From NCBI GenBank assembly GCA_945888515.1, contig CAMDAD010000016.1:1-62287 (forward strand): a stretch of 62,287 nt of DNA, given 5' to 3'. The notes beneath the pieces are model-generated. The model was not told the DNA's origin. It saw only the letters and a program-made list of their open reading frames with translations, and did no database searches. The translations under genes were made by a program, and so were the position numbers. Shown piece after piece: positions 5,500 to 62,287 of the stretch. The stretch's first letter is position 1. The number at the start of each line of letters is the position of its first letter. Source of the stretch: Akkermansia muciniphila. Its GTDB lineage: Bacteria > Verrucomicrobiota > Verrucomicrobiia > Verrucomicrobiales > Akkermansiaceae.

Positions 5500-5504
5500 T
5501 TGTT

Positions 5505-6926: not shown

Positions 6927-6994
6927 AGAGGGATGAGTAACCGATTTTTACCGAACCGTAAAGCTGTTAGGTGGAGAAAACGGAATTTGTTCAC

Positions 6995-7984: not shown

Positions 7985-8005
7985 GGCAGGATATTTCGGA
8001 ATGAC

Positions 8006-10907: not shown

Positions 10908-10936
10908 AGTCTGATACGGATGGGAACCACGTCGGC

Positions 10937-11356: not shown

Positions 11357-11374
11357 ACAACAACAGCAGGGTTG

Positions 11375-12187: not shown

Positions 12188-12284
12188 GAGTGTATCATGA
12201 TTTTGGTGTTGGGCAATGCCTGATCCACGGATTCCGTTTGTGATTTTCTCTATTTGCCGTAAGCTGGACTCTTACACGACAGCG

Positions 12285-13844
12285 ATGGATAAAGCGGATT
12301 TCAGAATCAAGCTGCGGGATGTGCCGCACCAACCCGGAGTCTATCTGATGAAAGATCGCATCGGATCGATTATTTATGTCGGTAAGGCAAAAGACCTACG
12401 TAAGCGGATGTCGAGTTATTTCATGGCATCGCGAAAAATGAAGGCGGACGTGAAAACGCGCGCGCTGATCGAGGCAATCTGGGACTTTGAATTTCACGTG
12501 GTGCGCAATGAACAGGAATCGCTCTTGCTCGAGGGCAAGCTGATCAAGGACTACCGCCCGCGCTACAATGTGACTTTTCGCGATGACAAGCGGTTTTATC
12601 TGGTGAAAGTGAACCTTCACGACCCTTGGCCGAGGTTGGTGATGACACGTTTGAAAAAAGACGATCAGGCACGCTACTTCGGCCCTTTTGCCCACTCCAG
12701 CGCCTTGCGCGCATCGGTAGAATGGCTCAATCGCAAGTTCGGCCTGCGCACCTGCCGCGCACACGATCCTGGAGAGCAGGAATACAAACACTGCCATGCC
12801 GACGTGATTCGCAATTGCGCCGCGCCCTGTGTGAACCGCATTTCCCGTGAGGATTATGCTGCGCGTATCGCCGAGGTGTGTCGACTGCTGGAGGGAAAAG
12901 GGAGGCGTGAAGTCTTCGATGATCTACGTGAGGAAATGACTGCGGCTGCGACGGCGATGCAGTTTGAGCGCGCGGCCTTGTTGCGCGACATGATTCAAAA
13001 TCTCGAGCTTACGCTCAACCCTACCCGACAGTTTTCTCGGGGCAGGGGACTGCCGACCACCGTCAAGCCTATCGAAGACCTCGCCGAGTTGGGCGAGTGG
13101 TTGAATCTCCCCGGCCCACCGCGGGTGATGGAGTGTTTCGATATTTCGAACGTCTCATCGGTCCATATCGTGGCATCGATGGTGCGGTTTGTCGATGGCG
13201 TGCCAGACAATCAGGCATACCGCCGTTACCGAATCAAGACCGTCAAGGGGCAGGATGACTTCGCCAGTATGGCGGAGGTAGTGCGGCGCCGGTATTCCAG
13301 AATTTTGTTAGAAAATGCCGTGGCAAATCCCGATGTCGCTGCCGAGAGTCAGGAGAGTGTGGTCGAGACGCAACGGCGTTTGGCGCGATCGGGCAAAGCG
13401 AAAGTGCTGTTGCCGGACTTGGTGATTGTCGATGGAGGCAAGGGGCAGCTCAGCAGTGCCATGGCAGAATTGCAACAACTGCAGTTGCACGAGCTGCCTT
13501 TGATCGGACTGGCGAAGCAGCGCGAGGAGGTGTTTCGTCCGGGCGAGAGCGAGCCCCTGGTCATACCGCATGATCGAGGTGCTCTGAAGCTCTTGCAGCG
13601 CATCCGTGATGAAGCGCATCGCTTTGCCAATGCCTACAATTCGCTGCTGTTGCGCAGGCGAATGAAAGAAAGCCTGCTCGATGACTGTCCTGGCATGACG
13701 GCGGGGCGCAAGATTCTATTGATGAAACGTTTCGGCTCGGTAGCGTCTTTGCGCAAAGCGGGTCTCGAGGAGATCGCTCAATGCCGCGGAATTACAAAAT
13801 CGTTCGCCGAGTCACTTTTCCAATGGCTTCATCGGGCGGAGTGA
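12285..13844 (+). CDS. uvrC: Excinuclease ABC subunit C (UvrC)
   Basis: 519 residues from the ATG at 12285, shorter than E. coli UvrC (610). The N-terminal GIY-YIG nuclease (GVYLMKD about 18-24, IIYVGKAKDLRKR about 29-41) makes the 3' incision. A UVR motif (AATAMQFERAALLRDMI) follows and binds UvrB. The RNase H-like domain (MECFDISNVSS, DLVIVDGGKGQLSSA, HRFANAYN) makes the 5' incision. The end holds a helix-hairpin-helix pair (DDCPGMTAGRK, RKAGLEEIAQCRGI). An upstream in-frame start would add 23 residues with no family similarity. Confidence 0.97.
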   Translation: MDKADFRIKLRDVPHQPGVYLMKDRIGSIIYVGKAKDLRKRMSSYFMASRKMKADVKTRALIEAIWDFEFHVVRNEQESLLLEGKLIKDYRPRYNVTFRDDKRFYLVKVNLHDPWPRLVMTRLKKDDQARYFGPFAHSSALRASVEWLNRKFGLRTCRAHDPGEQEYKHCHADVIRNCAAPCVNRISREDYAARIAEVCRLLEGKGRREVFDDLREEMTAAATAMQFERAALLRDMIQNLELTLNPTRQFSRGRGLPTTVKPIEDLAELGEWLNLPGPPRVMECFDISNVSSVHIVASMVRFVDGVPDNQAYRRYRIKTVKGQDDFASMAEVVRRRYSRILLENAVANPDVAAESQESVVETQRRLARSGKAKVLLPDLVIVDGGKGQLSSAMAELQQLQLHELPLIGLAKQREEVFRPGESEPLVIPHDRGALKLLQRIRDEAHRFANAYNSLLLRRRMKESLLDDCPGMTAGRKILLMKRFGSVASLRKAGLEEIAQCRGITKSFAESLFQWLHRAE

Positions 13845-13845
13845 T

Positions 13846-13905
13846 GGGCGGTGTCGCGCACCAGCATCAGGCGAAAAAGTCATCTGATGTCACACCCAAC
13901 CGCCC
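13846..13905. other. Structured intergenic element after uvrC
   Basis: Nested inverted repeats fill the gap between uvrC and the M42 peptidase gene. The outer arms are GGGCGGT (13846-13852) and ACCGCCC (13899-13905). The inner arms are CATCAG (13865-13870) and CTGATG (13884-13889). GGTGT/ACACC offers a competing pairing. No T-tract follows, so it is not a standard intrinsic terminator. It could end uvrC transcription weakly, protect the 3' end or be an interspersed palindrome. Confidence 0.4.
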
Positions 13906-14013
13906 GGAACTGATAGGATTGTCAACAAATGTCCCGTTGCCGCGGCTATTCCATCACTAGCACGCACTGGGATATTTTGTGAAAATTGACTCGTCGCGCG
14001 CGTGGAGATCGGT

Positions 14014-15102
14014 ATGATGATGCGCGTGCAGATCAAAGCTTTGTCCTTATTGCAGGAGCTCACCGAAGCTCACTCCGTGCCAGGTCATGAAGATGAGGTG
14101 CGGGCGATTTTTGTCGATGAACTCGAAAGCCATGGTGAACTCAGTTGCGATGGCAGCGGCTCAGTTTTCTGCGAGCGTGGCGAAGGACCGCGTGTGATGG
14201 TGGCAGGGCACATGGACGAGGTGGGTTTTCTGGTGCAAAACATCACGCCGGATGGTTTTTTGCAATTTGTGGCTGTTGGCGGTTGGTGGGAGCATTCCTT
14301 GTTGTCACAGAGAGTGGAGATACGCACTCGCGCAGGCGACAAAATTCTCGGGGTAGTCGCCTCGCGCCCGCCACATTTTTTACCAGCATCCCAGCGCTCA
14401 CAGATCATTCCTTTGGACCAGATGTTCATTGATGTGGGAGCTTCCTCGCGTGAGGAAGTGGAACGGAATATGGGCATACATCTGGGAGATCCCATCGCGC
14501 CGGTTAGCGCTTTTACGCCGATGGCCCGTGAGGATTATTTCATGGCCAAAGCTTTCGACAACAGGGTGGGTATGGCGGCGGCCATCCAGAGTGGTCAGTT
14601 GCTTAGTGAATCGTATCACCCGAACCGTCTCATCCTGGCGGGCACTGTGATGGAAGAGGTTGGTCTGCGCGGGGCTAAAACGGCAGCGCATTACGCGAAA
14701 CCAGATGTCGCCATCATTCTGGAGGGTCCGCCCGCTGATGACACACCGGGCTTTGCGCGATCGGAGTCTCAGGGTCGTCTCGGCGGTGGGGTTCAAATCC
14801 GGTTGTTCGATCCTACTGCGATCACCAATCCACGACTGGCTGCGCTGGCGATACAGGTCGCACGCGAAGAAGACATCGCCCACCAAGTGACTGTTCGTCG
14901 CAGTGGTGGCACGGATGCCGGATCCATTCATCTTGCTGGCTCGGGAATCCCCTGCATCGTTCTGGGAGTTCCCGCGCGCTACATTCATTCTCACAATTCC
15001 ATCATCGACATCAATGACTACCTCTCGATGGTGGCACTGACCACGGCTTTGGTGCGTCGGATGGATCAAAGCCACGTAGACGCGCTGACTTCTTATCTTT
15101 GA
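14014..15102 (+). CDS. M42 family metallopeptidase
   Basis: Cocatalytic zinc aminopeptidase of the M42 (glutamyl aminopeptidase/FrvX) family, 362 residues from the ATG at 14014. Two more ATGs follow immediately and a GTG lies at 14002, so the exact start is open. Metal and catalytic residues are visible: His and Asp in GHMDEVGF, Asp in AFDNRVGMAAA, the Glu pair in VMEEVGLRGA, Asp in GTDAGSIHLAG, and a late His in YIHSHNSIIDINDY. It probably acts on cytoplasmic peptides as a large oligomer. It converges with the lipoprotein hydrolase gene and overlaps it by 10 bp. Confidence 0.92.
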   Translation: MMMRVQIKALSLLQELTEAHSVPGHEDEVRAIFVDELESHGELSCDGSGSVFCERGEGPRVMVAGHMDEVGFLVQNITPDGFLQFVAVGGWWEHSLLSQRVEIRTRAGDKILGVVASRPPHFLPASQRSQIIPLDQMFIDVGASSREEVERNMGIHLGDPIAPVSAFTPMAREDYFMAKAFDNRVGMAAAIQSGQLLSESYHPNRLILAGTVMEEVGLRGAKTAAHYAKPDVAIILEGPPADDTPGFARSESQGRLGGGVQIRLFDPTAITNPRLAALAIQVAREEDIAHQVTVRRSGGTDAGSIHLAGSGIPCIVLGVPARYIHSHNSIIDINDYLSMVALTTALVRRMDQSHVDALTSYL

Positions 15103-48965: not shown

Positions 48966-50282
48966 ATGAAAACGCGACGTGATTTTTTACGCACCACCTT
49001 GTTAGGCGCTTCGGCGACGTGGACCGTGCCTGGATTTGTCAATCAGACTTTCGCAGCACTGGATCAGTCCACGCGCGACAAGGCCACGCAGTTTACCACG
49101 GGCAAGGATGGTCCCATCCTGGTGGTGATCCAGTTGGCCGGGGGCAATGACGGGCTCAATACGCTGGTGCCCTACGGTGACGATGCCTATCACAAGGCGA
49201 GAACGCGCATTCACAAAACGGAAAAGGACATCATCAAGCTGTCCGACTACTGCGGGCTAAATGCCAGCATGCCGTTTATGGGATCGCTCTATAAAGAGGG
49301 AGATCTTGCCGTCGTGCAGGGGGTGGGTTACCCGAATCCCAATCGCTCGCACTTTGTTTCGACCTCGATCTGGGAAACGGCGGATCCGAGCACCCGCTCG
49401 AACACGGGCTGGATTGGTCGATATTTCGACAATGCCTGTGCCGGTGCCGATCCGACGGTGGGCATGAGCTTTAACAAAACGCAGCCCGAGTCCTTTGGTG
49501 CGTTGAAAAATTCTGGCGTCTGCCTTTCCTCGCCTGAGCTCTACCGCTGGATCCACGGCGGCGGCCAGCAGGCCCAGGCCGAGGAGTTTTTTGCGCAGCT
49601 GAATAGTCCCGATGCCGATAAGGAGGAGGACGCCGCGCCGATCGATGGGGCCAGCATTGGCATGAGTGCGGGTGGCAAGCCGGGCACCGTAAAAGGTGAA
49701 TCCAATCTCGCGTTTCTCGAACGCGTGGGCATGGATGCTCGGGTTTCCTCGAAGACGATTCTAGAAATTGCGGCGAAATACAAATCGAAGATCAGCTACG
49801 AGGGCACGCCTCTCGCGCGGAGCCTGAATCTGGTATCGCGCATGATCGCCGGTGGCCTGCCGACGCGGGTGTTTTACGTGAGCCATGGGGGCTTCGATAC
49901 CCACAACAATCAGATCAACTCGCACGATCGCTTGCTCAGCCAGCTCGATAGCGCGCTGAAGTCCTTTTTGTCCGACATCAAATCGCAGGGCAATGAAAGC
50001 CGCGTGAGCGTGATGACCTTCTCGGAGTTCGGGCGTCGCGTTGGCGAAAACGCCAGCGGCGGCACTGATCACGGCCAGGGTTCCTGCATGTTCCTCGCTG
50101 GTGCTCCAGTGAAGGGCGGATTGTTTGGAAAACATCCTAGCCTAACGGATCTGAGCCAGGGCGACCTAAAATTCACCACGGATTTCCGCAGCGTGTATGC
50201 CACGGTGTTGGAGGATTTCATGAAAACTCCCTCCGCGCCCATCCTCAAGGCCGCTTATCCTAAGCTGGGCTTGATCGGCTGA
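48966..50282 (+). CDS. DUF1501 protein with Tat signal
   Basis: 438 residues. A Tat signal begins MKTRRDFLRTTLLGASATW. LAGGNDGLNTLVPYGDDAY starts the DUF1501 domain, and FYVSHGGFDTHNNQINSHD, TFSEFGRRVGENASGGTDHG and GGLFGKHPSL complete the alkaline-phosphatase-like metal motifs. It is closer to the common DUF1501 consensus than the 34-kb copy. Its 3' end overlaps the convergent jetD by 28 bp, so it marks the edge of the defence operon. Confidence 0.92.
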   Translation: MKTRRDFLRTTLLGASATWTVPGFVNQTFAALDQSTRDKATQFTTGKDGPILVVIQLAGGNDGLNTLVPYGDDAYHKARTRIHKTEKDIIKLSDYCGLNASMPFMGSLYKEGDLAVVQGVGYPNPNRSHFVSTSIWETADPSTRSNTGWIGRYFDNACAGADPTVGMSFNKTQPESFGALKNSGVCLSSPELYRWIHGGGQQAQAEEFFAQLNSPDADKEEDAAPIDGASIGMSAGGKPGTVKGESNLAFLERVGMDARVSSKTILEIAAKYKSKISYEGTPLARSLNLVSRMIAGGLPTRVFYVSHGGFDTHNNQINSHDRLLSQLDSALKSFLSDIKSQGNESRVSVMTFSEFGRRVGENASGGTDHGQGSCMFLAGAPVKGGLFGKHPSLTDLSQGDLKFTTDFRSVYATVLEDFMKTPSAPILKAAYPKLGLIG

Positions 50283-51484
50283 TCGCTGGCGGACATCCGC
50301 AATGCTTCCCATACTTGGGTGATGGGGATGGATTCCTGCTCGTAGTCGTTAGGGATGCCGTTTTCTAACAGAACTTCGGCATGAGCGCGAAGCTCTGCAG
50401 GCAATTCGCTATCGAGCAGGCGTTGCAAGGTCTGGCGTTGATTGTGAGCCAAGGCCTGGCGCGCAACTCCTTGCTGGCCGGGCAACAGGAGAGGTCTTAT
50501 GTCGCGGTCGGTTTTTTCACGCAAGTCGCGGAGGATGTCGGCACCGGCGGGGTCGCTATCGCCGAAGTGGAAATAGGTAAGTTCACTCGGCAGCAGTCGC
50601 ATCATGCGTCTGACAGCGGCACCGGCATAGCTGGTGAGGATCAGGAGCACGCCGGGATTGGTGGCGGCGAGTTCGTGGAAAGTGTCTTCGTTTTCGACCG
50701 TGAGGCAGATACTCGATTGAGTCGATAAAGTCGCTTGAATCGTAAAATTAGTCTCAGCAAGAGTGACGGGACCGGGAAACATGGAGAAGTCGGTTAGCTG
50801 CGTCCCGATTGTCAGCGTGAGCGGGCCGTGGAAGGTGACAAAGCGTGGCTTGCGCAGGATACCGCATGTTTCTAACGAATCGCTGCCGGTGATGGCATGG
50901 AGCGCCAGACGCAGACGCGGTTCGAGACGTTGGAGCTGTTTGGAATCTCCGCAGATCGCTGTGCTGGCATAGCGGATCAGGGAAGGGGAGGACCAGTGCA
51001 GGATGCCGCGAAGGGCAGTGAGGAGAGACTGATTTCCTAGTGCGTCGTCACGACGGAAGGGTTGGATACTTTCGCCGGCAAGTGCGTGCCCGGCGAGTTG
51101 GCGGAACCACTCGGTCCACTTTTGCTGCCATTGCGCGGGCATCTTCTGCCCGGCGATGGTGGAAAATGTTTCTGCGAGATCGATCCGTTGTTGCGATGGT
51201 GGCGTGGCATCCATTTGCGCAAACAACCACAACTCCCCACCATCCCGCACCAGGCGAATCCGCTGCGGTATGTCACTGCGCTTGTGGCGATCGATGGAGA
51301 AAACTCCCCCCGACGATTTTTCTAACAAAATCATTTCGCGTTCCGCGACCTCCCGCGCATCGCCATCGGCCATTCCGGCCTGGCGAAGAAAGGTTTCGTA
51401 ATCGATGGTGAAATCCCGCGAGCTCTCCCTGCGACCATGCGCCGAGTTCTGATAGAGGCGTGCGAGATGGGGAAGGATGCTCAT
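50255..51484 (-). CDS. jetD: Wadjet JetD, Toprim-type nuclease subunit
   Basis: 409 residues from the ATG at 51484; an upstream TTG would add 14. The N-terminal half (about 1-230) shows no motif I can name. The C-terminal DUF2220 domain is Toprim-like: the Glu in TVENEDTFHEL is residue 264 and the Asp pair in FHFGDSDPAGADI is 309 and 311. In Wadjet, JetD cleaves circular plasmid DNA after the JetABC SMC motor has extruded it. It is the last gene of the set, about 225 bp behind jetC, not overlapping as the others do. Its 3' end overlaps a DUF1501 gene. Confidence 0.85.
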   Translation of the reverse strand: MSILPHLARLYQNSAHGRRESSRDFTIDYETFLRQAGMADGDAREVAEREMILLEKSSGGVFSIDRHKRSDIPQRIRLVRDGGELWLFAQMDATPPSQQRIDLAETFSTIAGQKMPAQWQQKWTEWFRQLAGHALAGESIQPFRRDDALGNQSLLTALRGILHWSSPSLIRYASTAICGDSKQLQRLEPRLRLALHAITGSDSLETCGILRKPRFVTFHGPLTLTIGTQLTDFSMFPGPVTLAETNFTIQATLSTQSSICLTVENEDTFHELAATNPGVLLILTSYAGAAVRRMMRLLPSELTYFHFGDSDPAGADILRDLREKTDRDIRPLLLPGQQGVARQALAHNQRQTLQRLLDSELPAELRAHAEVLLENGIPNDYEQESIPITQVWEALRMSASDQPIKPSLG

Positions 51485-51616
51485 GGTTGAGGTTTGCAGT
51501 ATGCTCCATTCAGAAAGCGCTGACAAGGGCGGAGCGCGCGGATCCTCTCACGCACCCGTTGAGGTGTTGATATTTTCGGGGGATGGTGTCCCAGGGTTGA
51601 GCGAAGCGATTGATTG

Positions 51617-51683
51617 TCCCCAACGGGGTCTGTGAGCATAGCCTAGGGATTCCCTGGGCTATGTTCACGGTTCCCTTTGGGGA
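51617..51683. repeat. Long palindrome between jetC and jetD
   Basis: The inner arms GTGAGCATAGCC (51632-51643) and GGCTATGTTCAC (51657-51668) pair along their whole length with one G-U. AGGG/CCCT continues the stem toward a tiny loop. The outer arms TCCCCAA (51617-51623) and TTGGGGA (51677-51683) extend it. No T-tract follows on the jetC-to-jetD strand. The surrounding sequence, with in-frame stops, looks like a dispersed palindromic repeat of the kind frequent in PVC genomes. That comparison is from memory. Confidence 0.75.
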
Positions 51684-51709
51684 CGCGGGGATTCGTGAAT
51701 CCGTGCTTC

Positions 51710-54700
51710 TTATCCTTTACCTGCCGAATCACGCTCCTCAATCCATTTGCGACCTTCGGGGCTGTCGCGGAAGAGGACCACGGGGACGTTGCGGATTCCG
51801 ATTCTGTTGCCGACGCGTTCTTCTTTTCGCGAGATGACGATGAGTTCATCGCACTGGCGGAAGGCGTAGGGGATGTTGCCGCTGGACATGGAGAACATGC
51901 CTTGGAGGCCGAGCTCGGTCATGGCTTGGATGCAATTTTGGATGCGCTCACCGGAGAGTTTGGAGAAGGCTTCATCGATGGGGACGAGGGCGAGGGAGGC
52001 CTCCTTGCGTCTTGTTTCGTGGCGGTTGTAGGCGTGGAGGTAGCTAGCGAGGATGGCGATAAAATACGGGCTTTGGTTTTCGCCGCCACTCATTTTGCCG
52101 CTTTGTTTGTCCACGCTCACGGGGCGGGCCTCGGGGTCGCGGATGTCGGTGACGAGGAGGTCGTAGTCGAAGTATTGTCGATAGTCTAACAAACGCGCGG
52201 CCTCGGGACTGTTAGCGTTTTTGACGAGGAGCTGGAGGAAGCCTTCGAGGGCATCGCGCATCTCGCCGCTCATGCTATCGAAAAAGAGGCTGTCTTCGTG
52301 GTGGAGTGCGTTGAGGTCGATGAGTTCGCGGTAGAGGCGGAAGTCCGGGTTGTTCTTTTTATCGATCCTGTAGCGGTCGTTGCCGATGGGGCGCTTGAGT
52401 TGTTGATTGAGCAGGGAGATGATGTTTTCCACGTTCTTGAGCGCTTGCTGCATGCGGGAGAGCAGCTGGGTGCGGAAGAGGGATTCCCAGCGTTTACGCT
52501 CGGTGGCGGATTTTTTCTCATACTCGGGAATGTTCGCGTGCTCGATGACATCGAGGCGCTTCAGATAGGCACCGACGCCGCTGGCTTCTTCCGAGAGATC
52601 ATCGAACTTGGGATGGAAAGATTTTTTGAAGTCGACCATTGCCAGCTTGAGTTCGCCGTTCAGGCGGGTCGCATCGAGCTCAGCTTTGGCCTTGGCTTTT
52701 TCGAACTCGCGCGCGCAGACATCGAGAGCAGGCGTGAAGTTTTGCGCTTCTTCTTTCCACTCGCGGTAGCGGGTGAGATGTGGGGTGAGATCGATGCGGA
52801 GCTTGATGCGGGAAAATTCATCTTCTCGGCGACTGGCTTGTTCGGTGAGGTCCTTGAGCTGCTTTTCGGTTTGTTCGATTTCCTTGTGCGCGCCTTTGCG
52901 CAGGATGCCGTCGCGCTCTTTCGCCCACAGTGTTTGCTGTTCCTTGATGTCCTCGATCTGGTGTTGGAGTTGGGTAAATTGATCGGTGGCGATGGCTTGG
53001 TAGTCAGCCATTTTCCTCTCATGTTCTTCCTGCATGCGCGGCAGGGACTCGATGCGCACAAGGTCCTGCATGACTTGCTGGTGATCGGGAATTTCCAGCA
53101 TGCGCGATTCGATTAGATGAAGGATTTGTTGCTCTAACGGTTCGAGGCGACGGATGGCGGCATCGATATCGGCCAAGCGGTTGCGTTTGATTTCGAGCTG
53201 TCGGCGTAGGCCTTCTTCGCCGATGAAAGGAATGCCATCGTAGGGCTTGGGGCGGACGATCATTCCATCGCGTTTGTGCAAGCCATCGGACAGAATGGCG
53301 GAGTCGTGTTTGGCGAGATCGGAGGGGGAGGAAACGAGCACCATGTCGCCGAAAAGAGCATCGATGTGTGACTGCACGGCCTCGTGTTTGCAACGGAAAA
53401 TGGCAGCGAGAGTTGGGGCTTTGCTCGATTTTTTGTTAGAGGAAATGGCATCATCGCGCAACAATCGTTGCGGGCCGGCTTTGAGGAGATCGGCATCGGG
53501 GAGCTTGCGCAAAATGGCGAGTGCTTCCTCGAAATGCGAGGCTGAGACCAGCACGGAAAATTTCTGATCGAAAGCGACTTCGGCCGCGCAGCGCCAGGTC
53601 TCGTCCTCCACTTCGCAGAGTTCGCGTAAGGCGCGAGGTGGGGTTTCATTCGGCATCAGCGGCAGTTGATCGCGCAGGGCGCCGAGCAAGGGTTGATGCA
53701 CGGGAGAGATGCCTTTGCTGAGGAGATCGATCTCGGCGAGGAGGTCGGATTTTTCGCGACGGAGTTGTTGCAACTCGGCGCGGTCGGGGGCGAAGCGTTG
53801 TTCCAACTCGCGACTGACGTGCTTCGCGGCATCGGCGAGCATGGTTAAGGCACTGGCGGATTCGGCACTCTCACAGCCTTCGAGGAAACGCAGGGCGTCG
53901 GCGAGGCGGGTGGTGTCGACCATGGGATGCACGGGGGCCTTGGCGACTTTTTCCATCCAGCCGCGCGCGTCCTTGATGCGTTTGTTGATGCCGCCTTCGA
54001 TCTTGCTGCGGATGGTGCGCAGTCGCTCGATCTCGCTCTCTAACGCATAAATTTCCTCTGTAAGTTTTTTGAACAATCGGCCCTCGGTGGATTCATTGAG
54101 CAGGGCGAGCAGGTCTTCGCGGCGGGTGTCCGATTCCTCTAACAATCCGCTGAGTTCTAACAAGCGGCTTTCATCAGCGGCGTAATCCTCGCGCAGTTGT
54201 TGCAAGCGAGTTTGAGTTTTTTCGCGCTCGGAGGAGGCGTGTTTCCATGCGAATTCGGTATGGAGGTAGCTTGCGACATCGCGATCGCGATCGGCGGCGG
54301 TCCAGGCCTGGGAAAGATCGCGGATGCGCAGGAGGCGATCGAGCTGCGCCTTGAGGTCGGCGAGTTCTTTTTCGTAGGACTGGAAATCGCGGAAGCTGGT
54401 GATGATGGCATCGACGTCCACGGCCTCGGCGGGCAGGACGAACTGGCGGCAGAAGTCATCGAAGCTCTTCAAGTTCGTGAACGACATCGCGCTGGGCAGC
54501 AGGCGGTGGAGGACTTCCTTGTTGAAATTCAGGTGGCTGGGATTCGCCATGTCGCGAAGGTAATCGCGGGTCGATGAAAATGTACGACCGCCCTTTGACT
54601 CGATGAAGCGCTTGAACTCGGCGGCGGAGCTGGGTCGCTGTTTTCCGTCCTCGGACTGCGTGAGAAAGTCCGCGCGTTCGAGAGGAACGGGGCAGAAAAA

Positions 54701-55099
54701 CGGCGTGGTGGTGCCATCGTTTTCGGTGGTGTTGTGGTATTCGAAACGCAGGCCCCATGTCTCGATGCGTTTGCCATCAGGCCAGGTGAACTCGGCGCCG
54801 ATGTAGGTGGTGACGCCTTTGTCATGGAAAAACTGCGGTTGGCCGTTTTCCTCGCGCTTCGTATCGAGCAGGCAGTAGCCCTTGATGGTGCGATCACTTT
54901 TTCCTCCAGTGGCGCTGCGATTGAAATGATGGCGGGCTTTTTCCGGGCCTACGAGCACGAGCATGAGCAGGTCCATCAGGATGGACTTACCAGAACCGGT
55001 GACACCGGCGAGCACGAGATTGCCTCTGACCGGCAGCGAGTCGCGGTAGCCGTACCAATTCAGTGCGTGGATTTTCGTGAGCTGGATGGCGCGGTTCAT
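51710..55099 (-). CDS. jetC: Wadjet JetC, SMC/MukB-like ATPase
   Basis: 1129 residues. Walker A GVTGSGKS is at 32-39, after ALNWYGYRDSLPVRGN, the start typical of SbcC/MukB-like proteins in these operons. Two long coiled-coil arms (about 230-480 and 640-860) flank a hinge-like middle. The ABC signature SGGENQ is at 1004-1009 and Walker B LALVPIDEAF has Asp-Glu at 1042-1043. It is the loop-extruding motor, working as a dimer with JetA (kleisin) and JetB (KITE). Its ATG overlaps the jetB stop by 4 bp. The sequence looks intact. Confidence 0.95.
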   Translation of the reverse strand: MNRAIQLTKIHALNWYGYRDSLPVRGNLVLAGVTGSGKSILMDLLMLVLVGPEKARHHFNRSATGGKSDRTIKGYCLLDTKREENGQPQFFHDKGVTTYIGAEFTWPDGKRIETWGLRFEYHNTTENDGTTTPFFCPVPLERADFLTQSEDGKQRPSSAAEFKRFIESKGGRTFSSTRDYLRDMANPSHLNFNKEVLHRLLPSAMSFTNLKSFDDFCRQFVLPAEAVDVDAIITSFRDFQSYEKELADLKAQLDRLLRIRDLSQAWTAADRDRDVASYLHTEFAWKHASSEREKTQTRLQQLREDYAADESRLLELSGLLEESDTRREDLLALLNESTEGRLFKKLTEEIYALESEIERLRTIRSKIEGGINKRIKDARGWMEKVAKAPVHPMVDTTRLADALRFLEGCESAESASALTMLADAAKHVSRELEQRFAPDRAELQQLRREKSDLLAEIDLLSKGISPVHQPLLGALRDQLPLMPNETPPRALRELCEVEDETWRCAAEVAFDQKFSVLVSASHFEEALAILRKLPDADLLKAGPQRLLRDDAISSNKKSSKAPTLAAIFRCKHEAVQSHIDALFGDMVLVSSPSDLAKHDSAILSDGLHKRDGMIVRPKPYDGIPFIGEEGLRRQLEIKRNRLADIDAAIRRLEPLEQQILHLIESRMLEIPDHQQVMQDLVRIESLPRMQEEHERKMADYQAIATDQFTQLQHQIEDIKEQQTLWAKERDGILRKGAHKEIEQTEKQLKDLTEQASRREDEFSRIKLRIDLTPHLTRYREWKEEAQNFTPALDVCAREFEKAKAKAELDATRLNGELKLAMVDFKKSFHPKFDDLSEEASGVGAYLKRLDVIEHANIPEYEKKSATERKRWESLFRTQLLSRMQQALKNVENIISLLNQQLKRPIGNDRYRIDKKNNPDFRLYRELIDLNALHHEDSLFFDSMSGEMRDALEGFLQLLVKNANSPEAARLLDYRQYFDYDLLVTDIRDPEARPVSVDKQSGKMSGGENQSPYFIAILASYLHAYNRHETRRKEASLALVPIDEAFSKLSGERIQNCIQAMTELGLQGMFSMSSGNIPYAFRQCDELIVISRKEERVGNRIGIRNVPVVLFRDSPEGRKWIEERDSAGKG

Positions 55100-55770
55100 A
55101 GGGAGTCCTCCTCTTCGGTGGATGAAATGTCTTCGTCGCTGGTGGCATCGGCATCGCGGCGGAACGTCTGGGCCGTCTCCGTCCAGGCAGCGAGATCGCG
55201 GAAGGGGATGATGCGGCGGATGGTGGGGAGGACCTCGATGCCGGAGTCTTCGAATGGCTCGGCTGGCTCGAAGCGGATCAGATGGTATCGCGCGGCCAGG
55301 CGCAGGATGTCGCGCAGTTGGCCCTTGGGGAGTGGCCCGATGGCATCGGGCAGCAGTTGATCGTGGAGCAGGTCATTGAGCTCGGCGACCGAAAGAAAGG
55401 CCTGATCGAGGCCTTCATCGCGCCAACGGACATCGCCCGCATACCACAGCGCGAGCCAGACGAGAGTGGCATCTTGCTTGAGCTGGAGCCGCAGCGAGGC
55501 GGTGCGCGGTATCGCTTGGATGAGGCGCTCTTCGTGGAGCAGGGAAACTTCCAGGCCGGAGAGTAACGCAATTTCCTTGAGCCAATCGGCATACTGACGG
55601 CACCAATGATAGAGCGCGGAGCGGTTCGGATCGAGGCCATTGATGGAGCCGGTGGCAAGCAGGAGCTGGATGGCCTCGGCGAGGCGATCGCGCTCGTGTT
55701 CCGGCAGGCTCAGCAAGCCGACCGGTGCCGCCGCGACAAAGGCGGAGTCTTCTGGGGAGTGTTCGTTCAT
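55096..55770 (-). CDS. jetB: Wadjet JetB, MukE-like KITE subunit
   Basis: 224 residues, the size of JetB/MukE proteins (DUF4194 type). Predicted winged-helix parts are around LSLPEHERDRLAEAIQLLL and VAELNDLLHDQLL. LRLQLKQDATLVWLALWYA near 95 and RLAARYHLIRFEP near 165 are the best conserved-looking parts. An acidic end (TSDEDISSTEEEDSL) closes it. Identity rests mainly on order and size, being between jetA and jetC with ATGA-type overlaps on both sides. It should bind the kleisin JetA. Confidence 0.88.
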   Translation of the reverse strand: MNEHSPEDSAFVAAAPVGLLSLPEHERDRLAEAIQLLLATGSINGLDPNRSALYHWCRQYADWLKEIALLSGLEVSLLHEERLIQAIPRTASLRLQLKQDATLVWLALWYAGDVRWRDEGLDQAFLSVAELNDLLHDQLLPDAIGPLPKGQLRDILRLAARYHLIRFEPAEPFEDSGIEVLPTIRRIIPFRDLAAWTETAQTFRRDADATSDEDISSTEEEDSL

Positions 55771-57218
55771 TTTTTGATGATGGAAAATCGTTCGACCGAG
55801 CAGCCGTCTAACAGATCGATGGGTGGCATGAGTTCTTCCTGCGTCACGCGCTGGGCCTCGATGCGGAAACGCGCCTCGGGAGACTCCGCATGCAGGAGCA
55901 GCGAGATCAGATCGGTAAAGCCCGAGTCGCCCGCTACGGTGAGCTCGTGGCTCTCGATGCGCGCACCCTTCGCGCCGGGCAGAGATTGGAGAAACACATT
56001 CGCGCGATGGACCGAGAGCGATTCGCGCAGGGCTTTTTCCATATCGCGCAGGCCTGTCATGCGGTCGCTTTCGCTGATGTCATCCTCGAAGGCTTCCTGC
56101 TCCATCGGCGTGCGGCGGAGTTGCGGTGTTTTCAGAGAATCGAGGCCGTTGGGGATTTTTGCGGCGGGCAGGAGCATGGGCGGAAACTCCGGGGCGCTGT
56201 TGGCGAGTTGTGATACTTTTTTTCCAGCGGCGAGCTGATTGACCTGCTCGAAGAATGTTTTTAATTCGTGGCGCCGCTCGCCGCTGATGTCCTGCAAGTA
56301 GCGAAAGCGCGCCAGTGAGCGACGCGTGAAATCGGCCGTGCGTTTGTCGATCTCGTCAGCCATGGGCAGCACCCGCTCTAACAGCTCGATCAATTCATCG
56401 AGCGCCTGCGAGACACGGGCATGCGCCGTCGCCGCGCTGATGTCTGGATGACGGCGCAGGAGCGTTTCCTGCATGGTATTGGTGGCGGCGTGCTCGCCGA
56501 GTCGCTCGGTGATGCGGCGCACAGCCTCGGGCAAACGCAGCGGCAACCGCGCTCTCACCAGCGAGGCGTAGCAGGAGTTGGTCATTTGCTCGCTGTAGTC
56601 ATCGAACACCACCGCGAGGTTCCCTTGTAGGGTTTCCTCTTCCATTTGGCGGCGGGTGAAACGCTGAACGGATTTCTGCATCGAGCGCAGTTCATTCAGG
56701 CCCTCGCGCACCATCGACAGGCAATTTTCCACCGTCTCCCAGGGGCGCTCGGTGAGCTCGATTTCATTTGCCAGCAGCGCGCAAACGCCGGTGAGTTTAT
56801 CGGTGAACACTGCGGCATCCGGCCACGCGATTTTCCGCAGCGCGGTGAGCAGTGTGGCGCCATGGGCATCGAAAATCAACTTGCGCCGCCAGTCACGGCG
56901 CGGCGGTTCCTCCAGCCAGCGGCACTTGATCAAGTATTCGAGAATGAGCCGCGCGCGCTGGCGTGCATCGTCCGTGGCGATCTCGGCGGAAACATCGGCG
57001 GCCTCGGCGTCGAGCTCGAGACTAGGGTGCTGATCGAGCGTTTCCACGATGATCGCCATGGCTTCCTCGCGCGCCATGCCATCGGGTCGGTCGGACGTGA
57101 CGCGCTCTAGGTCATCGAGCACATCCACATAAAACGCCGCATTTTTCCCACTCAACACGCGGAAAAATCCCGTGCCACGGGTTTCGCGAAAGAGGGCGGT
57201 GGAGAGAAGTTCGTCCAT
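55767..57218 (-). CDS. jetA: Wadjet JetA, MukF-like kleisin subunit
   Basis: 483 residues, first gene of the operon. The start LFRETRGTGFFRVLSGKNAAFYVDVLDDL resembles the JetA family used in type II Wadjet (DUF5716/PF18982 in my recollection) rather than DUF3375. Helical segments continue to about 330. A Pro-rich linker (PPMLLPAAKIPNG) and a C-terminal winged-helix-like end follow, fitting a kleisin that bridges the JetC heads. The jetB ATG overlaps its stop. The promoter should lie in the AT-rich stretch around 57270-57340. Confidence 0.85.
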   Translation of the reverse strand: MDELLSTALFRETRGTGFFRVLSGKNAAFYVDVLDDLERVTSDRPDGMAREEAMAIIVETLDQHPSLELDAEAADVSAEIATDDARQRARLILEYLIKCRWLEEPPRRDWRRKLIFDAHGATLLTALRKIAWPDAAVFTDKLTGVCALLANEIELTERPWETVENCLSMVREGLNELRSMQKSVQRFTRRQMEEETLQGNLAVVFDDYSEQMTNSCYASLVRARLPLRLPEAVRRITERLGEHAATNTMQETLLRRHPDISAATAHARVSQALDELIELLERVLPMADEIDKRTADFTRRSLARFRYLQDISGERRHELKTFFEQVNQLAAGKKVSQLANSAPEFPPMLLPAAKIPNGLDSLKTPQLRRTPMEQEAFEDDISESDRMTGLRDMEKALRESLSVHRANVFLQSLPGAKGARIESHELTVAGDSGFTDLISLLLHAESPEARFRIEAQRVTQEELMPPIDLLDGCSVERFSIIKK

Positions 57219-57433
57219 GGGAGAGGCGCACGAGGCTAATTGTTTCTGCGGCAGAGGGAAGCAAGAAAGTTTTGCTATATGCCTTCAGCATTAGAAGGTT
57301 ATTTTCTTAGCTGAAATTTGTCTTGATTTTTTGTATTGAACTTCAATGATCAATGTATCTGCGCAAACGGAAGAGGGAGTAAGAAACCTGATAACAAGCG
57401 GTTAGTAATGACCGCAAACATTGCTACCAAACC
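57219..57433. other. AT-rich intergenic region with divergent promoters
   Basis: Between jetA (minus) and the C-rich secreted gene (plus) is about 350 bp with no convincing gene. The 57285-57350 part is AT-rich and is the likely promoter zone for the jet operon. A small palindrome TTGAA-C-TTCAA (57337-57347) could be an operator. No clear -35/-10 pair was assigned. Confidence 0.4.
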
Positions 57434-57524
57434 AGCCGAAAGGCCGGGGAGGCAGCGGCGCATGTCCAAGCTGTTTCCTTGCGAAATAGCCAAAGGCCGT
57501 TGCCGCTTTCCTCTGGCGGCTTTT
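57434..57524 (+). promoter_or_regulatory. Leader with mutually exclusive hairpins (attenuator-like)
   Basis: GCC-GAAA-GGC forms a tetraloop hairpin at 57435-57444. GGCAGCGGC (57451-57459) pairs with GCCGTTGCC (57496-57504), 9 bp with one G-U. GCCGCT (57502-57507) pairs instead with GGCGGC (57515-57520), followed by TTTT, a short terminator-like stem. The last two share 57502-57504, so only one can form. This is an antiterminator/terminator layout about 50 bp before the next gene. No known riboswitch class was matched. It could alternatively be a dispersed palindromic repeat. Confidence 0.45.
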
Positions 57525-57572
57525 GAACTCCCCGTCCACCTGTGAGGGCAAAAAATTTCAAATCACAGAAAA

Positions 57573-58454
57573 ATGCAAATTCACAGATTCCTCCCTCTAC
57601 TCTTGGTCGGCGCATTAGCCGCACAGGAAGTTTCCTCGCCCCGTGCCACCATCCTCGCTCCCATCATCCCCGCGCCAGTCGCCCAGCCAGTACCGCAGGC
57701 CGTTCTCCGTCTCGACATTGCACCCGAAAGCATCCTCGAATCAAAAGAACGCATCGTCAACGGCCAAAAAATCACCACTCAGGAAATCACTCCCATCACC
57801 CTGCCGCCGATTCCACCCGCGCCAGAACCGCGCCCCCTCACCGCCGGGCAAATCGCTGCCCGCGACGCAAAACTAGCCAGCGCCCGGAAATACCGCAGCC
57901 TCATGCTCTCCTGCACCGTCTTCGATGACAAACACACCCGCATCCAAGGCACCACGCGCATCAAAGACACCACCGAGCGCTGGGAAGCCTGGAGCAACAT
58001 CAACTTCCATCACTTCAACAGACTACCCCGCTTCCAAAAGAACGACATCACCTATTCACTCTTCTTAGGCATCGGTGACGAAAACACCACAAAAGCCGCC
58101 GCCCGCTTCGCCCGCGCTACAAGAACCTACACCCCACCTACCATCCCCGATCTTCCTGCAGATCCCACCACTGCACCGCGCTTCATCGTCACCAGCGGCA
58201 ACCCCACCGCCGAAGACCTAGCGCCCATCGTCGGCCTTCACGAACTCTACCAAGACCACCACAAAGAGCTCATCAGCGAATACATCCGCATCAAAGCCCA
58301 ACAAGAACGCGAAGCCGCCGAACGCCTCGCCAATCCCCCTGACCCCAAACCCGACATCATCATCCAACACTGGACCGTCACCCCCGACGCTCCACCCGCC
58401 CCCACCAAACTCGAAATCATCCCCACCAAAACCGAGGAAGGAGAAACCAAATGA
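57573..58454 (+). CDS. Secreted proline-rich protein of unknown function
   Basis: 293 residues. The signal peptide is MQIHRFLPLLLVGALAAQ. Pro-rich stretches at about 25-50 and 70-90 (ITLPPIPPAPEPRPLTAG) and near the end (NPPDPKP, PDAPPAPTK) frame a folded middle with YRSLMLSCTVFDDKHTR and WEAWSNINFHHFNRLPRF. No family recognised. The coding strand is strikingly C-rich and G-poor, unlike most of the window. Stop and the next start overlap as ATGA, so it is co-translated with the transglutaminase-like gene. Confidence 0.75.
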   Translation: MQIHRFLPLLLVGALAAQEVSSPRATILAPIIPAPVAQPVPQAVLRLDIAPESILESKERIVNGQKITTQEITPITLPPIPPAPEPRPLTAGQIAARDAKLASARKYRSLMLSCTVFDDKHTRIQGTTRIKDTTERWEAWSNINFHHFNRLPRFQKNDITYSLFLGIGDENTTKAAARFARATRTYTPPTIPDLPADPTTAPRFIVTSGNPTAEDLAPIVGLHELYQDHHKELISEYIRIKAQQEREAAERLANPPDPKPDIIIQHWTVTPDAPPAPTKLEIIPTKTEEGETK

Positions 58455-60670
58455 AATCCCTCCTCCCTTCAAACCTTAGCGCCCCTCGCGCCTTGGCGAT
58501 CTTAGCGGCGATACTTACTACACAAACACAAGCCATCCTAGACACAAACGCAAACGCCCTCAGCGACCTCTGGGAAAAACAACACAACAGCGGCAACCTC
58601 TTCGCCCCAACCATCCTCGCCACCAACGACGAAGACCTGGACGGCTGGACCAACGCCCAAGAAGCCGCTGCCGGCACCGATCCCTTCAACCCCAATCCCC
58701 CTGACGGCATCGTCACCGTCACCATCACTCCCAGCCTCACCGCAGAAGCCTTCACACTCACTTGGCCCACACTCGTAGGAAAAAACTACCAACTCAAAGT
58801 CAGCACCGATCTTGTCACCTGGAGCAACCTCGGCGACCCCATCAGCACATACGAAAACACCCACAGCATCGGCGTCAACACCATCCAAACGGATAACTCG
58901 ATTCCTGATAATGTATTCTGGCAAGTCACCGTAACAGACATAAAAACTGATAGCGACGAACTTACTGATGCAGAAGAGTATGCCTTGGGCACCAATTCCT
59001 ATAATCCTGACACAGATGGCGACGGAACTTCCGATAGCGATGAGATGATTGCTGGTACGGACCCAAGTAATCCAAGCGACGCCCCTGAAACAGGTTGGGT
59101 CATTCTAGATGGAGACTTGGAAGAAAATGAAGAAAAAACCCTAACCCGCACGCTTCGCATCCCTAAGGGACAACGAGCACTTCTCTTGGTTTATGTCGCA
59201 AGCGCTGAATACTCGTATTGGACAGACCCTACTACGCCAAATGAATTCAACGATACATTGACTTGGAATATCCAGCCTTCATCTGGAGCTACTGTGTCTG
59301 GTTCCATCAATGTCAATGCACGTCATGAAAATTGGATCGAAGCAGAAAATCGTGGACTTTCATTCCGTAGTAATGATCCCATACACATTGAAAACGCGAA
59401 GGTTTTGTCCGCAACAGAAACCGAGGATTTGACTCTCAATATAAGCTTATCCGCGACAAATATCAGTGATGGCGAACTACCAAGCACGATAGCCGTAGCT
59501 CTTTTACCGTTACGTCAGCGTGAGATCGAGTTCGGTGGAGTTCAGTATCACGTATTAAAGAGTGATGATGGCAACACAACATACGCTGCGCCACACTGGA
59601 TCGACTTGGATGGAAACGGAGATGCCTTGGATACAGCCAAGGGCGAGAGAAACTACAGCGCAGCATTCACCCGTAAGACACAACCCAAGGTCAAATCCAT
59701 TTTCAAAATCAAAGATTTACCGGAGAATCTGAAGATTGAGATCAAAGCCACCGCTAACGATGGGATCAGTTTCCCACAAAAAGATGCGCAATTTTCAGAA
59801 GAGCAGGTGATCTACCCCATGACCGGCAGTAGCCCTACGCTCCTGCCTGACGAAATTCGCTATTATCCCAAATCTGACGCTGCCAAAGCGTTTAAGATAC
59901 AATGGGAAATGAACGTAGAAAATGCTGGATGGGGAATTGTGGGCGAGTCGTTTCATCAAATCTATGTCACACTCGAAACGCCTATTTCCCCGCTGCGACA
60001 AGAGACCTTGTTTGAGATTGGCTGTCGCAGAGCTAACGGAATATCAGTCGTTGCACTTGCTAGAACAAATATCTATGCAGAATTTAAAACAAAGAATGTG
60101 AAAAGATTAATCGATCAATTGCAGTTATCATATTGGAAAAACAATGAAGAAGGTGCTCTTACAACATCTGCTTTATTATCATCGGTAAATGGTAATGGAA
60201 CCTGCAATGCTTGGGCATTTTTCTTTCGCGATATTTTACGGATACAGGGAATAGAAGCAAATTTTGTTCAGATAATACCGCTGATATCAGGTGTTGCTGA
60301 GCAAGACAGAGTGTTGGCAGTTAAAGAATGGAATTTTGCAGGCAACGGTTCGGCACCAGCACCTTATTCCTACGTGATAAATACCGATGCAACTCCCGGA
60401 AACAACGGAACTGTAGCGCAGAACAATCCCAATCCACCTAAAAGATTCGATATTCATTCCATAACATTGTCAGGTGGTATTTTATATGATCCCTCCTACG
60501 GAACACCGGAAGTCGGCACTACAGTTAAGGATTATGAAGACGCTTCTTTTGCTGGGTTTGGCAGGTATATAGAGATTTCTGGTGGAATACGTAAAATTGC
60601 ATTCAAGAAAAACGATGTAACAGCAGAATCGGCACAAGAAGTTGAACTCGTTACAGTTAATGGAGAATAA
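58451..60670 (+). CDS. Secreted protein with calcium-type repeats and a transglutaminase-like C-terminus
   Basis: 739 residues. A hydrophobic export segment lies at about 12-28. Thrombospondin-3/dockerin-like Asp-rich repeats follow: NDEDLDGWTNAQEAAAGTDP near 60, and DTDGDGTSDSDEMIAGTDP near 195. A beta-rich region fills the middle. Near the end GNGTCNAWAFFFRDILRIQG supplies a Cys in a helix start. FDIHSITLSGGILYDPSYG supplies His and Asp, the arrangement of transglutaminase-like cysteine proteases. The first 200 codons are C-rich while the last 250 are AT-rich, so the C-terminal domain may have been exchanged. It is possibly a secreted enzyme or toxin; the following lipoprotein would then be the candidate immunity partner. 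Confidence 0.78.
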   Translation: MKSLLPSNLSAPRALAILAAILTTQTQAILDTNANALSDLWEKQHNSGNLFAPTILATNDEDLDGWTNAQEAAAGTDPFNPNPPDGIVTVTITPSLTAEAFTLTWPTLVGKNYQLKVSTDLVTWSNLGDPISTYENTHSIGVNTIQTDNSIPDNVFWQVTVTDIKTDSDELTDAEEYALGTNSYNPDTDGDGTSDSDEMIAGTDPSNPSDAPETGWVILDGDLEENEEKTLTRTLRIPKGQRALLLVYVASAEYSYWTDPTTPNEFNDTLTWNIQPSSGATVSGSINVNARHENWIEAENRGLSFRSNDPIHIENAKVLSATETEDLTLNISLSATNISDGELPSTIAVALLPLRQREIEFGGVQYHVLKSDDGNTTYAAPHWIDLDGNGDALDTAKGERNYSAAFTRKTQPKVKSIFKIKDLPENLKIEIKATANDGISFPQKDAQFSEEQVIYPMTGSSPTLLPDEIRYYPKSDAAKAFKIQWEMNVENAGWGIVGESFHQIYVTLETPISPLRQETLFEIGCRRANGISVVALARTNIYAEFKTKNVKRLIDQLQLSYWKNNEEGALTTSALLSSVNGNGTCNAWAFFFRDILRIQGIEANFVQIIPLISGVAEQDRVLAVKEWNFAGNGSAPAPYSYVINTDATPGNNGTVAQNNPNPPKRFDIHSITLSGGILYDPSYGTPEVGTTVKDYEDASFAGFGRYIEISGGIRKIAFKKNDVTAESAQEVELVTVNGE

Positions 60671-61265: not shown

Positions 61266-61427
61266 TTGATACAGAAATTTTAACGGCAAACGCAATGGCA
61301 TGAGGTAAACAGCATCAAAAGTTTTTAGAATTTTCAAAAAGAAAGGGGATGGAGATGAACTCACAGCCCACTTTCCTTTTGATGGTCAAGATGCTACATA
61401 CTGTTTCCTCGTCCAAAAGTTGCCAGC

Positions 61428-62287
61428 ATGAAACACCTACGACACGAAGAAAGACATACCATCCAGATGATGAAGCAGCAAGGCCATAGTCAAAAAGTCA
61501 TCGCCGAGACCCTGGGGCGCTCGCCCGCTACGATCTCGCGTGAACTCAAGCGCAACGCTCTGGCAGATGGCGATTATTCCGCCGTCTTCGCCGAGCGCTT
61601 TGCGCGAGATCGATGCTACGGCAAAGCGCACTATCGTGCCATCAACGAGCAGAGTGCCGATTTCATCCAGGATAGGCTTGTAGAGAAGTTGAGCCCCGAG
61701 CAAATCATTGGCAGAGCTCATCAGCAACAAACCAGCTTAAGGCTGCCCTGCATTGCGACCATATACAAACATGTGTGGGCTGATCGTAAGCGTGGGGGAA
61801 CAATGTTTCATCACTTGCGTCAGCAAGGACACAGAAGAAAAAAGCATGGTCAGGGCAAAGTGAAACAACCTACGGTTCCAAATCGGATTGATATCAGCAA
61901 ACGCTCTAAGGAAGTAGAAAAACGCCAACGTCTTGGCGACTTTGAATGTGACCTCATCGTGGGCGCTGGACAAAGTGGAGTTTTACTAACGGTGAACTGT
62001 CGCGCATCAGGAAAGCTTTGGATGAAAAAGCTGCCCACCAAAGAGGCTCCTGGGGTCAGAGATGCTCTGATCGAAATCCTATCGCCCTATAAAGACCGAC
62101 TACATACGATCACGAGTGATAACGGTAAAGAGTTTAGCCTGCATGAGGCAGTGTCAGAGCGATTGAGTTGCGGATACTTTTTTGCGCGCCCCTATCATAG
62201 TTGGGAACGCGGATCGAACGAGAATCTCAACGGACTCATCAGACAATATTTTCCCAAGAAAATGGAATTTTGGTCCATCACACAAAA
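61428..62287 (+). CDS. IS30-family transposase, cut by the window end
   Basis: At least 286 codons, no stop before the edge. The N-terminal helix-turn-helix reads EERHTIQMMKQQGHSQKVIA then RSPATISRELKRN, the classic IS30 start. KLSPEQIIGR and ATIYKHVW follow. The DDE triad is seen as FECDLIVGA (Asp), ITSDNGKEF (Asp) and the Glu in SNENLNGLIRQYFPK. The ATG at 61428 is the likely start. The insertion sequence's left end should lie between about 61380 and 61427, but its inverted repeat cannot be fixed without the other end. It looks intact as far as visible. Confidence 0.93.
   Translation, partial: MKHLRHEERHTIQMMKQQGHSQKVIAETLGRSPATISRELKRNALADGDYSAVFAERFARDRCYGKAHYRAINEQSADFIQDRLVEKLSPEQIIGRAHQQQTSLRLPCIATIYKHVWADRKRGGTMFHHLRQQGHRRKKHGQGKVKQPTVPNRIDISKRSKEVEKRQRLGDFECDLIVGAGQSGVLLTVNCRASGKLWMKKLPTKEAPGVRDALIEILSPYKDRLHTITSDNGKEFSLHEAVSERLSCGYFFARPYHSWERGSNENLNGLIRQYFPKKMEFWSITQ

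What the first reader, a model, noticed from the sequence alone, without database searches (positions are those of the whole stretch)
50255..57218. Complete Wadjet plasmid-defence operon in a verrucomicrobial context
jetA, jetB, jetC and jetD are in order with 4-bp overlaps among the first three, and Walker A/B, SGGE signature and Toprim residues are intact. Wadjet is a known SMC-type anti-plasmid system. The JetA start resembles the PF18982 group, and the JetD N-terminus is not the DUF3322 type I recall, so the subtype may be II or a variant. The set borders a DUF1501 gene and repeats, consistent with acquisition.
Basis: partly seen in the sequence, partly recalled or inferred. Interest (0 to 1): 0.7.

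Follow-up and report, generated by a model that had tools for sequence, protein, structure and literature searches.

The report
Complete type I Wadjet anti-plasmid operon
This stretch of a Verrucomicrobia genome carries a complete, intact-looking set of four genes of a known kind (type I Wadjet) that probably reels in small circular plasmids and cuts them; the set itself is ordinary, but in several relatives the gene for the cutting enzyme lies elsewhere or was not found.

Summary
jetA, jetB, jetC and jetD lie at 57218-50255 on the minus strand, with 4-bp overlaps among the first three and intact ATPase and Toprim residues. JetD lacks a Pfam DUF3322 match, but its model aligns over nearly its whole length with solved JetD and MksG. 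In 8 of 8 same-genus regions homology stops at the end of DUF1501 and no jet gene is found, which fits acquisition. Verdict: a new member of a known kind, expected to cut small circular DNA; activity untested.

Relatives are less ordinary. Of 23 genomes of the phylum with this JetA family, four carry jetD on another contig and five have none detected. The nearest JetC relative, found separately, also has jetD elsewhere. JetC and JetD trees agree only in part. One 96%-complete genome has JetABC but no detected JetD, Smc, ScpA or ScpB. JetD-less type I Wadjet is in print for Stenotrophomonas; my searches found no report of unlinked jetD.

The parts
55767..57218 (-). jetA, kleisin-type subunit, 483 aa
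   Evidence: Pfam PF18982 JetA 145.3 bits; PADLOC hits are all JetA1 profiles, best 107 bits
55096..55770 (-). jetB, KITE-type (MukE-like) subunit, 224 aa; 4-bp overlaps with jetA and jetC
   Evidence: Pfam PF13835 DUF4194 36.1 bits, cut-off 32.7; PADLOC hits are all JetB1 profiles, best 42.3 bits
51710..55099 (-). jetC, SMC ATPase, 1129 aa; Walker A residues 32-39, signature SGGE 1004-1007, Walker B D1042/E1043
   Evidence: PADLOC JetC1 498.6 bits against 21.7 for JetC2; profile of 25 rows matches solved JetC chains over profile positions 9-1092; motifs
53060..53812 (-). JetC hinge region, residues 430-680
   Evidence: Model mean pLDDT 91.1; Foldseek's best matches are SMC hinge domains, VIA Z up to 13.5
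50255..51484 (-). jetD, Toprim nuclease subunit, 409 aa from ATG (423 aa if TTG 51526 is used)
   Evidence: Pfam JetD_C 45.4 bits; PADLOC JetD1 99.5 bits; model against 8b7f Z 14.2 and 7til Z 13.8; start by comparison with the nearest relative
51485..51709 (.). 225-nt jetC-jetD spacer with a long palindrome at about 51616-51684
   Evidence: 51500-51720 folded as single-stranded DNA: z -2.96, 1 of 200 shuffles as good; partial copies within G000:C7:148540-148754
48966..50282 (+). Neighbouring DUF1501 gene, at the edge of the stretch shared with same-genus genomes
   Evidence: Pfam PF07394; homology with 8 relatives' regions stops at 50227-50283

Best explanation
A complete type I Wadjet (JetABCD, also called MksFEBG) operon, probably acquired by this lineage next to the DUF1501 gene. 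Expected working: JetC dimers with kleisin JetA and KITE JetB form an ATP-driven SMC motor that reels in circular DNA without regard to sequence; when a small circle has been fully extruded, the JetD dimer is switched on and cuts it. Shown here: gene set, order, homology, intact motifs, predicted fold of JetD and of the JetC hinge. Inferred from characterised type I systems: extrusion, size and shape sensing, cleavage. Not shown: expression or activity in this organism.
For: Four genes in order, two 4-bp overlaps; Pfam matches above cut-off; type I PADLOC profiles best for all four, and matched by 25 of 25 JetC rows and 22 of 22 JetD rows, window included; JetC profile collinear with solved JetC chains over positions 9-1092; JetD model matches 8b7f and 7til over nearly its whole length; E278, D323, D325 invariant in 22 of 22 aligned JetDs; JetC motifs kept in 25 of 25 rows; dN well below dS for JetA, JetC and JetD against L034 and L039 (dS is near saturation). 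Mechanism from PMC10586767 section 4, read in full, and passages of PMC12647877.
Against: JetA, JetB and JetD give no PDB hit as single sequences at E 1; the JetD_C and DUF4194 matches are modest. In the structure comparison topoisomerase VI A scores higher (Z 18.1, over residues 161-417) than either JetD relative, so that ranking alone would not name JetD. jetD is not overlapped with jetC and sits behind a palindrome, so co-expression is unproven. JetD diverges faster than JetC (62 against 75% identity with L034), and the nearest JetC relative keeps jetD on another contig.
Confidence: 0.92

Rival explanations
1. JetABC here serves mainly as a second chromosome-folding condensin (MksBEF-like), with JetD an accessory that may be dispensable.
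For: Relatives G020, G022, G033 and G039 keep JetABC with no JetD detected by two profiles, and their JetC motifs are intact. A JetD-less JetABC is conserved in Stenotrophomonas (PMC11680222, passages), and P. aeruginosa MksBEF acts on the chromosome (PMC10586767).
Against: In the window JetD is present with its Toprim residues, and the genome has its own Smc, ScpA and ScpB.
Confidence: 0.15
2. A type II, type III or new Wadjet subtype.
For: JetD lacks a Pfam DUF3322 match; PADLOC gives weak extra hits to JetC2 (21.7 bits) and JetD3 (17.9 bits); among aligned relatives 17 of 25 JetC and 14 of 22 JetD rows also match one type II profile at E 0.001 or better.
Against: Type I profiles win by a wide margin for JetC and JetD, and JetA and JetB hit no other type at E 1. 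The hinge does not decide: a Wadjet-II also has one, described as lacking a channel (PMC12647877 passages), and its chain 9qe0 is among the matches (Z 9.1); a channel was not tested here.
Confidence: 0.04
3. A decaying operon: jetD poorly expressed or on the way to loss because of the inserted palindrome.
For: 225-nt spacer with palindrome; JetD evolves faster than JetC; G015 and L036 show interrupted jetD frames.
Against: The window's jetD frame is full length with the conserved residues, and dN is well below dS.
Confidence: 0.1

Closest known systems
Type I Wadjet of E. coli GF4-3 (JetC chains 8as8, 8q72, 9qxt; that these entries are this strain is recalled, the call names only 'JetC')
   Same: JetC profile collinear over positions 9-1092; same four components by PMC12647877 passages
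   Different: Distant: 104.6 bits with a 25-row profile and no hit to these chains with the window JetC alone
P. aeruginosa PA14 JetABCD (8dk1 JetC, 7til JetD; strain of 8dk1 recalled)
   Same: JetC found by phmmer (1.2e-10); JetD model aligned 16-414, Z 13.8
   Different: 17% identity over the aligned JetD
C. glutamicum MksBEFG (MksG 8b7f)
   Same: JetD model aligned 13-415, Z 14.2; called type I in PMC10123090 (passages)
   Different: 16% identity; separate lineage
JetD-less Wadjet I of Stenotrophomonas maltophilia (PMC11680222, passages)
   Same: Type I JetABC persisting without JetD, as in some relatives here
   Different: The window has jetD

Membership tests
Wadjet type I | Four genes jetA-jetB-jetC-jetD in order on one strand | tested here: met
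Wadjet type I | Proteins score best with JetA1, JetB1, JetC1, JetD1 profiles | tested here: met
   best type I scores 107, 42.3, 498.6, 99.5 bits; best of another type none, none, 21.7, 17.9
Wadjet type I | SMC ATPase with Walker A, signature and Walker B, and an SMC-type hinge | tested here: met
   motifs; modelled hinge
Wadjet type I | Hinge with an open ring channel (as described for E. coli GF4-3) | not tested
   only the monomer was modelled
Wadjet type I | JetD with CAP-like N-terminus and topoVI-A-like Toprim carrying the acidic residues | tested here: met
   predicted model only; residues
Wadjet type I | ATP-dependent cleavage of small circular DNA; plasmid restriction | not testable with these tools
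   needs an experiment
Wadjet type II or III | Best profile match to type II or III components | tested here: not met
MukBEF / MksBEF without nuclease | No JetD-type nuclease with the SMC operon | tested here: not met
   jetD present downstream of jetC
JetD subgroup with Pfam DUF3322 N-terminus | PF11795 match | tested here: not met
   not in the window protein at E 1; 2 of 22 rows match, while 22 of 22 match JetD1 profiles, so this is not a defining mark of type I

The most novel reading that the evidence does not exclude
In this verrucomicrobial branch of type I Wadjet the nuclease is a detachable part: jetD has left the operon several times and still serves its JetABC in trans, and has been lost several times, once (G022) in a genome where no Smc, ScpA or ScpB is detected, so that a JetD-less Wadjet may have become the only condensin, a separate rerun of the route proposed for MukBEF. 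The window, with jetD linked but behind a palindromic spacer and with a near relative that has it elsewhere, would be a snapshot near such a break.
Probability: 0.25. Interest if true: 0.65.

Novelty: new member of a known kind. Interest (0 to 1): 0.33.

Why it matters
By itself it adds one more type I Wadjet, in a phylum little discussed for it: of the six papers my search for Wadjet with Verrucomicrobi- listed, none has either term in title or abstract. If the wider reading holds, related JetABC complexes with linked, unlinked or no JetD give natural material for asking whether JetD can work in trans and how a plasmid-cutting SMC machine turns into a chromosome-folding one, a relationship that PMC10586767 calls not resolved.

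Tried and rejected
Weak PF18982 matches below the cut-off: eight g3 genomes and G213 (19.2-21.7 bits) and G046 (20.7 bits). The jet profiles built from the window and its relatives found nothing in the six of these ten loci that I fetched, L066-L071. In L067 the matching ORF is RmuC (323 bits, against 21.3 for JetA). The other g3 cases are taken as the same by analogy. These ten were dropped before the count of 23.

NCBIfam gave no useful match. Rfam at E 1 gave the tRNA-Leu and one weak match to its other strand, so the spacer palindrome is not a named RNA there. The spacer has only partial copies at one other place of the genome; the spacers of other relatives were read by eye and look different. 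GC of the operon (58.7%) is above the left part of the window (54.0%), but DUF1501 itself is 57.5%, so GC is weak evidence for acquisition. Alternative effectors beside JetD-less or jetD-unlinked JetABC: neighbours after jetC read by eye in L043, L044, L046, L050, L051, L053, L060, L061, L062; no recurrent one seen, except that L060 and L061, from two species of one genus, share theirs. LemA and DUF3137 follow jetC in L043. No shared neighbours seen around L050-L053 and L062. JetC relatives on plasmids: 11 of 72,556 PLSDB records, three covering 80% or more of the query, on replicons of 361-628 kb.

Full report
What is there. The minus strand of 50255-57218 holds four ORFs of 483, 224, 1129 and 423 aa. 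Pfam names them JetA (PF18982), DUF4194 (PF13835, the JetB family), SbcC-type Walker B plus P-loop (PF13558, PF13555) and JetD_C (PF09983), each above its curated cut-off. The first three overlap by 4 bp. jetD stands apart: 183 nt after jetC from a TTG, or 225 nt from the ATG at 51484, where similarity to the nearest relative begins. The genome (3.36 Mb in 54 contigs, 97.5% complete) has one JetD_C match, this one.

Subtype. PADLOC profiles put all four in type I; JetA and JetB hit no other type, JetC scores 498.6 bits for type I against 21.7 for type II, JetD 99.5 for type I against 17.9 for type III. Across aligned rows, window included, 25 of 25 JetC and 22 of 22 JetD match type I profiles, although 17 of 25 JetC and 14 of 22 JetD also match one type II profile at E 0.001 or better.

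JetD. Pfam finds no N-terminal domain; DUF3322 matches 2 of 22 aligned JetDs, not the window's. The AlphaFold2 model (22-row alignment, mean pLDDT 88.9, pTM 0.66) finds topoisomerase VI A and C. glutamicum MksG first in Foldseek. The second look ranks topoisomerase VI A highest (Z 18.1, residues 161-417) and aligns residues 13-415 with MksG 8b7f (Z 14.2, rmsd 7.7, 331 residues) and 16-414 with P. aeruginosa JetD 7til (Z 13.8, rmsd 10.7, 335 residues). The high rmsd may reflect domain positions, which differ between the two known structures (PMC10586767); that is inference. E278, D323 and D325 are invariant in 22 of 22.

JetC. ATPase motifs are kept in 25 of 25 aligned rows. A profile of these rows matches solved JetC chains over positions 9-1092 (3.5e-29). 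The modelled hinge (residues 430-680, pLDDT 91.1) matches SMC hinge domains best (Z up to 13.5). PMC12647877 (passages) reports a ring-shaped hinge in a type I complex and a channel-less one in a type II complex; whether the window hinge has a channel was not tested.

Setting and acquisition. DUF1501 has an 82-97% identical counterpart in 8 of 9 other genomes of the genus. Regions were fetched from those 8; in each, BLASTN homology with the window stops at 50227-50283, the end of DUF1501, and none of the four jet profiles matches any of the 8 regions. Seven of the 8 carry on for more than 3 kb; the eighth (G004) ends 356 bases after the gene. Seven of the 9 same-genus genomes have no PF18982 match; G002 and G006 have distant JetABC on other contigs. 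This supports gain by the window's lineage, or loss by the others; it does not date it. The right end of the window carries a transposase-like ORF cut by the contig end.

Relatives. Two overlapping samples (57 genomes; 387 of the phylum; own genome in both) give 23 distinct genomes with PF18982 above cut-off; ten with weaker matches were dropped. From I sort the 23 as follows. jetD next after jetC, same strand, full frame, the gap running from an overlap to 363 nt: 11 (G000, G021, G027, G037, G041, G045, G048, G050, G054, G297, G349); in G048 the gap holds a small DUF6968 ORF. Next after jetC but cut by the contig end: 1 (G038, which also has a PIN/VapB pair between jetB and jetC). Next after jetC with an interrupted frame: 1 (G015). 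jetC and jetD together but jetA and jetB on another contig: 1 (G056, 86% complete). jetD on another contig while other ORFs follow jetC: 4 (G002, G006, G042, G051). No JetD found by PF09983 or by the JetD profile: 5 (G020, G022, G033, G039, 95-98% complete, and G010, 72% complete with jetC cut by the contig end). G426, reached through JetC (L043, 92% identical over residues 835-1127; the rest of its JetC was not found), also has jetD on another contig. In G002 and G006 the unlinked jetD has the same neighbours, a family-2 glycosyltransferase and a Sua5-type gene, which speaks against a binning error; in G002 jetD starts 62 bases from a contig end. All 10 records are titled as MAGs, so single cases may be artefacts.

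Do unlinked JetDs belong to their JetABC? Quick trees of 26 JetC and 21 JetD rows, compared by eye, agree in part. G051 pairs with G037 in both (SH-aLRT 90 and 85). G042 falls in the same larger group in both, with weak support in the JetD tree (75). The G426 JetD is sister to the window's (98), as its JetC fragment is the closest to the window's (92% against 89% for L034 over the same segment). Against: G002 and G006 join G033, G349 and G027 in the JetC tree (99), while in the JetD tree G349 and G027 join G041 and G045 (97) and G002/G006 stand apart (73); and c42, G021 and G297 group differently. So co-descent is likely for some and open for others.

A lead outside the window. Ten of 11 genomes checked have ScpA; G022 has none. 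Of five checked, four have ScpB and four have Smc above cut-off; G022 has no ScpB match, and its ten Smc-profile matches are weak (best 27.5 bits, cut-off 567). G022 is 96% complete, has JetABC with intact JetC motifs (L053) and no JetD found. smc, scpA and scpB lie on three contigs in G000 and G020; scpA and scpB share a contig in G033 and are neighbours in G039, so two or three separate gaps would be needed to explain the absence. G039, whose JetC is sister to that of G022, is a single contig, also lacks JetD and keeps Smc, ScpA and ScpB. One genome is not proof, and no second member of its genus was examined.

Literature. Search listings. PMC10586767: section 4 read in full. PMC12287153: passages and section 15. 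PMC10123090, PMC12647877, PMC11680222, PMC8954581: passages. JetD-less Wadjet I is reported in S. maltophilia, and PMC10586767 proposes MksBEF of P. aeruginosa arose by loss of JetD. None of these searches showed a report of unlinked jetD; most subscription papers and all bioRxiv preprints are outside the library, so this is weak evidence of novelty.

Verdict. A real, complete type I Wadjet operon, probably functional and probably acquired; ordinary as a system. The behaviour of jetD in relatives is the part worth following.

Noticed in passing
L053 (G022:C39:694000-712000), jetA 13452-14876, jetB 12487-13446, jetC 9149-12490, minus strand: A 96%-complete same-family genome with JetABC but no detected JetD, Smc, ScpA or ScpB; possibly a JetD-less Wadjet as sole condensin.
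   Followed up: partly
L089 (jetD 6844-8112), L090, L091, L092, L093: jetD genes with no other jet gene in the fetched stretch, in genomes whose JetABC lies on another contig; L092 and L093 share neighbours.
   Followed up: partly
L059 and L094 (G056): jetA and jetB on one contig in opposite orientation, jetC and jetD together on another.
   Followed up: no
L043 975-2523: LemA and DUF3137 genes directly after jetC where jetD would be expected.
   Followed up: no
L041 and L045, about 5036-5899: Insertion of about 0.9 kb between jetB and jetC holding a PIN-domain and a VapB antitoxin ORF on the other strand, a VapBC-type pair.
   Followed up: partly
L057 8817-9122: A 101-aa DUF6968 ORF between jetC and jetD in G048.
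   Followed up: no
window 61428-62287: Transposase-like ORF running off the contig end; Pfam HTH_38, IS30-like by recall. The stretch 61316-61418 has 11 similar copies in G007, five of them within 12 bases of a contig start.
   Followed up: no
window 57356-58938: The gene upstream of jetA (57573-58454) and its leader (57396-57547) have several similar copies in G005, G007 and G009; no Pfam match.
   Followed up: no
window 51616-51684; L042 about 10414-10511: Different long palindromes in the jetC-jetD spacers of the window and of L042 (L042 read by eye).
   Followed up: partly
L120 4003-7794 (G009): In the closest same-genus genome the canonical smc gene starts 340 bases after DUF1501; in the window's genome smc is on another contig.
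   Followed up: no
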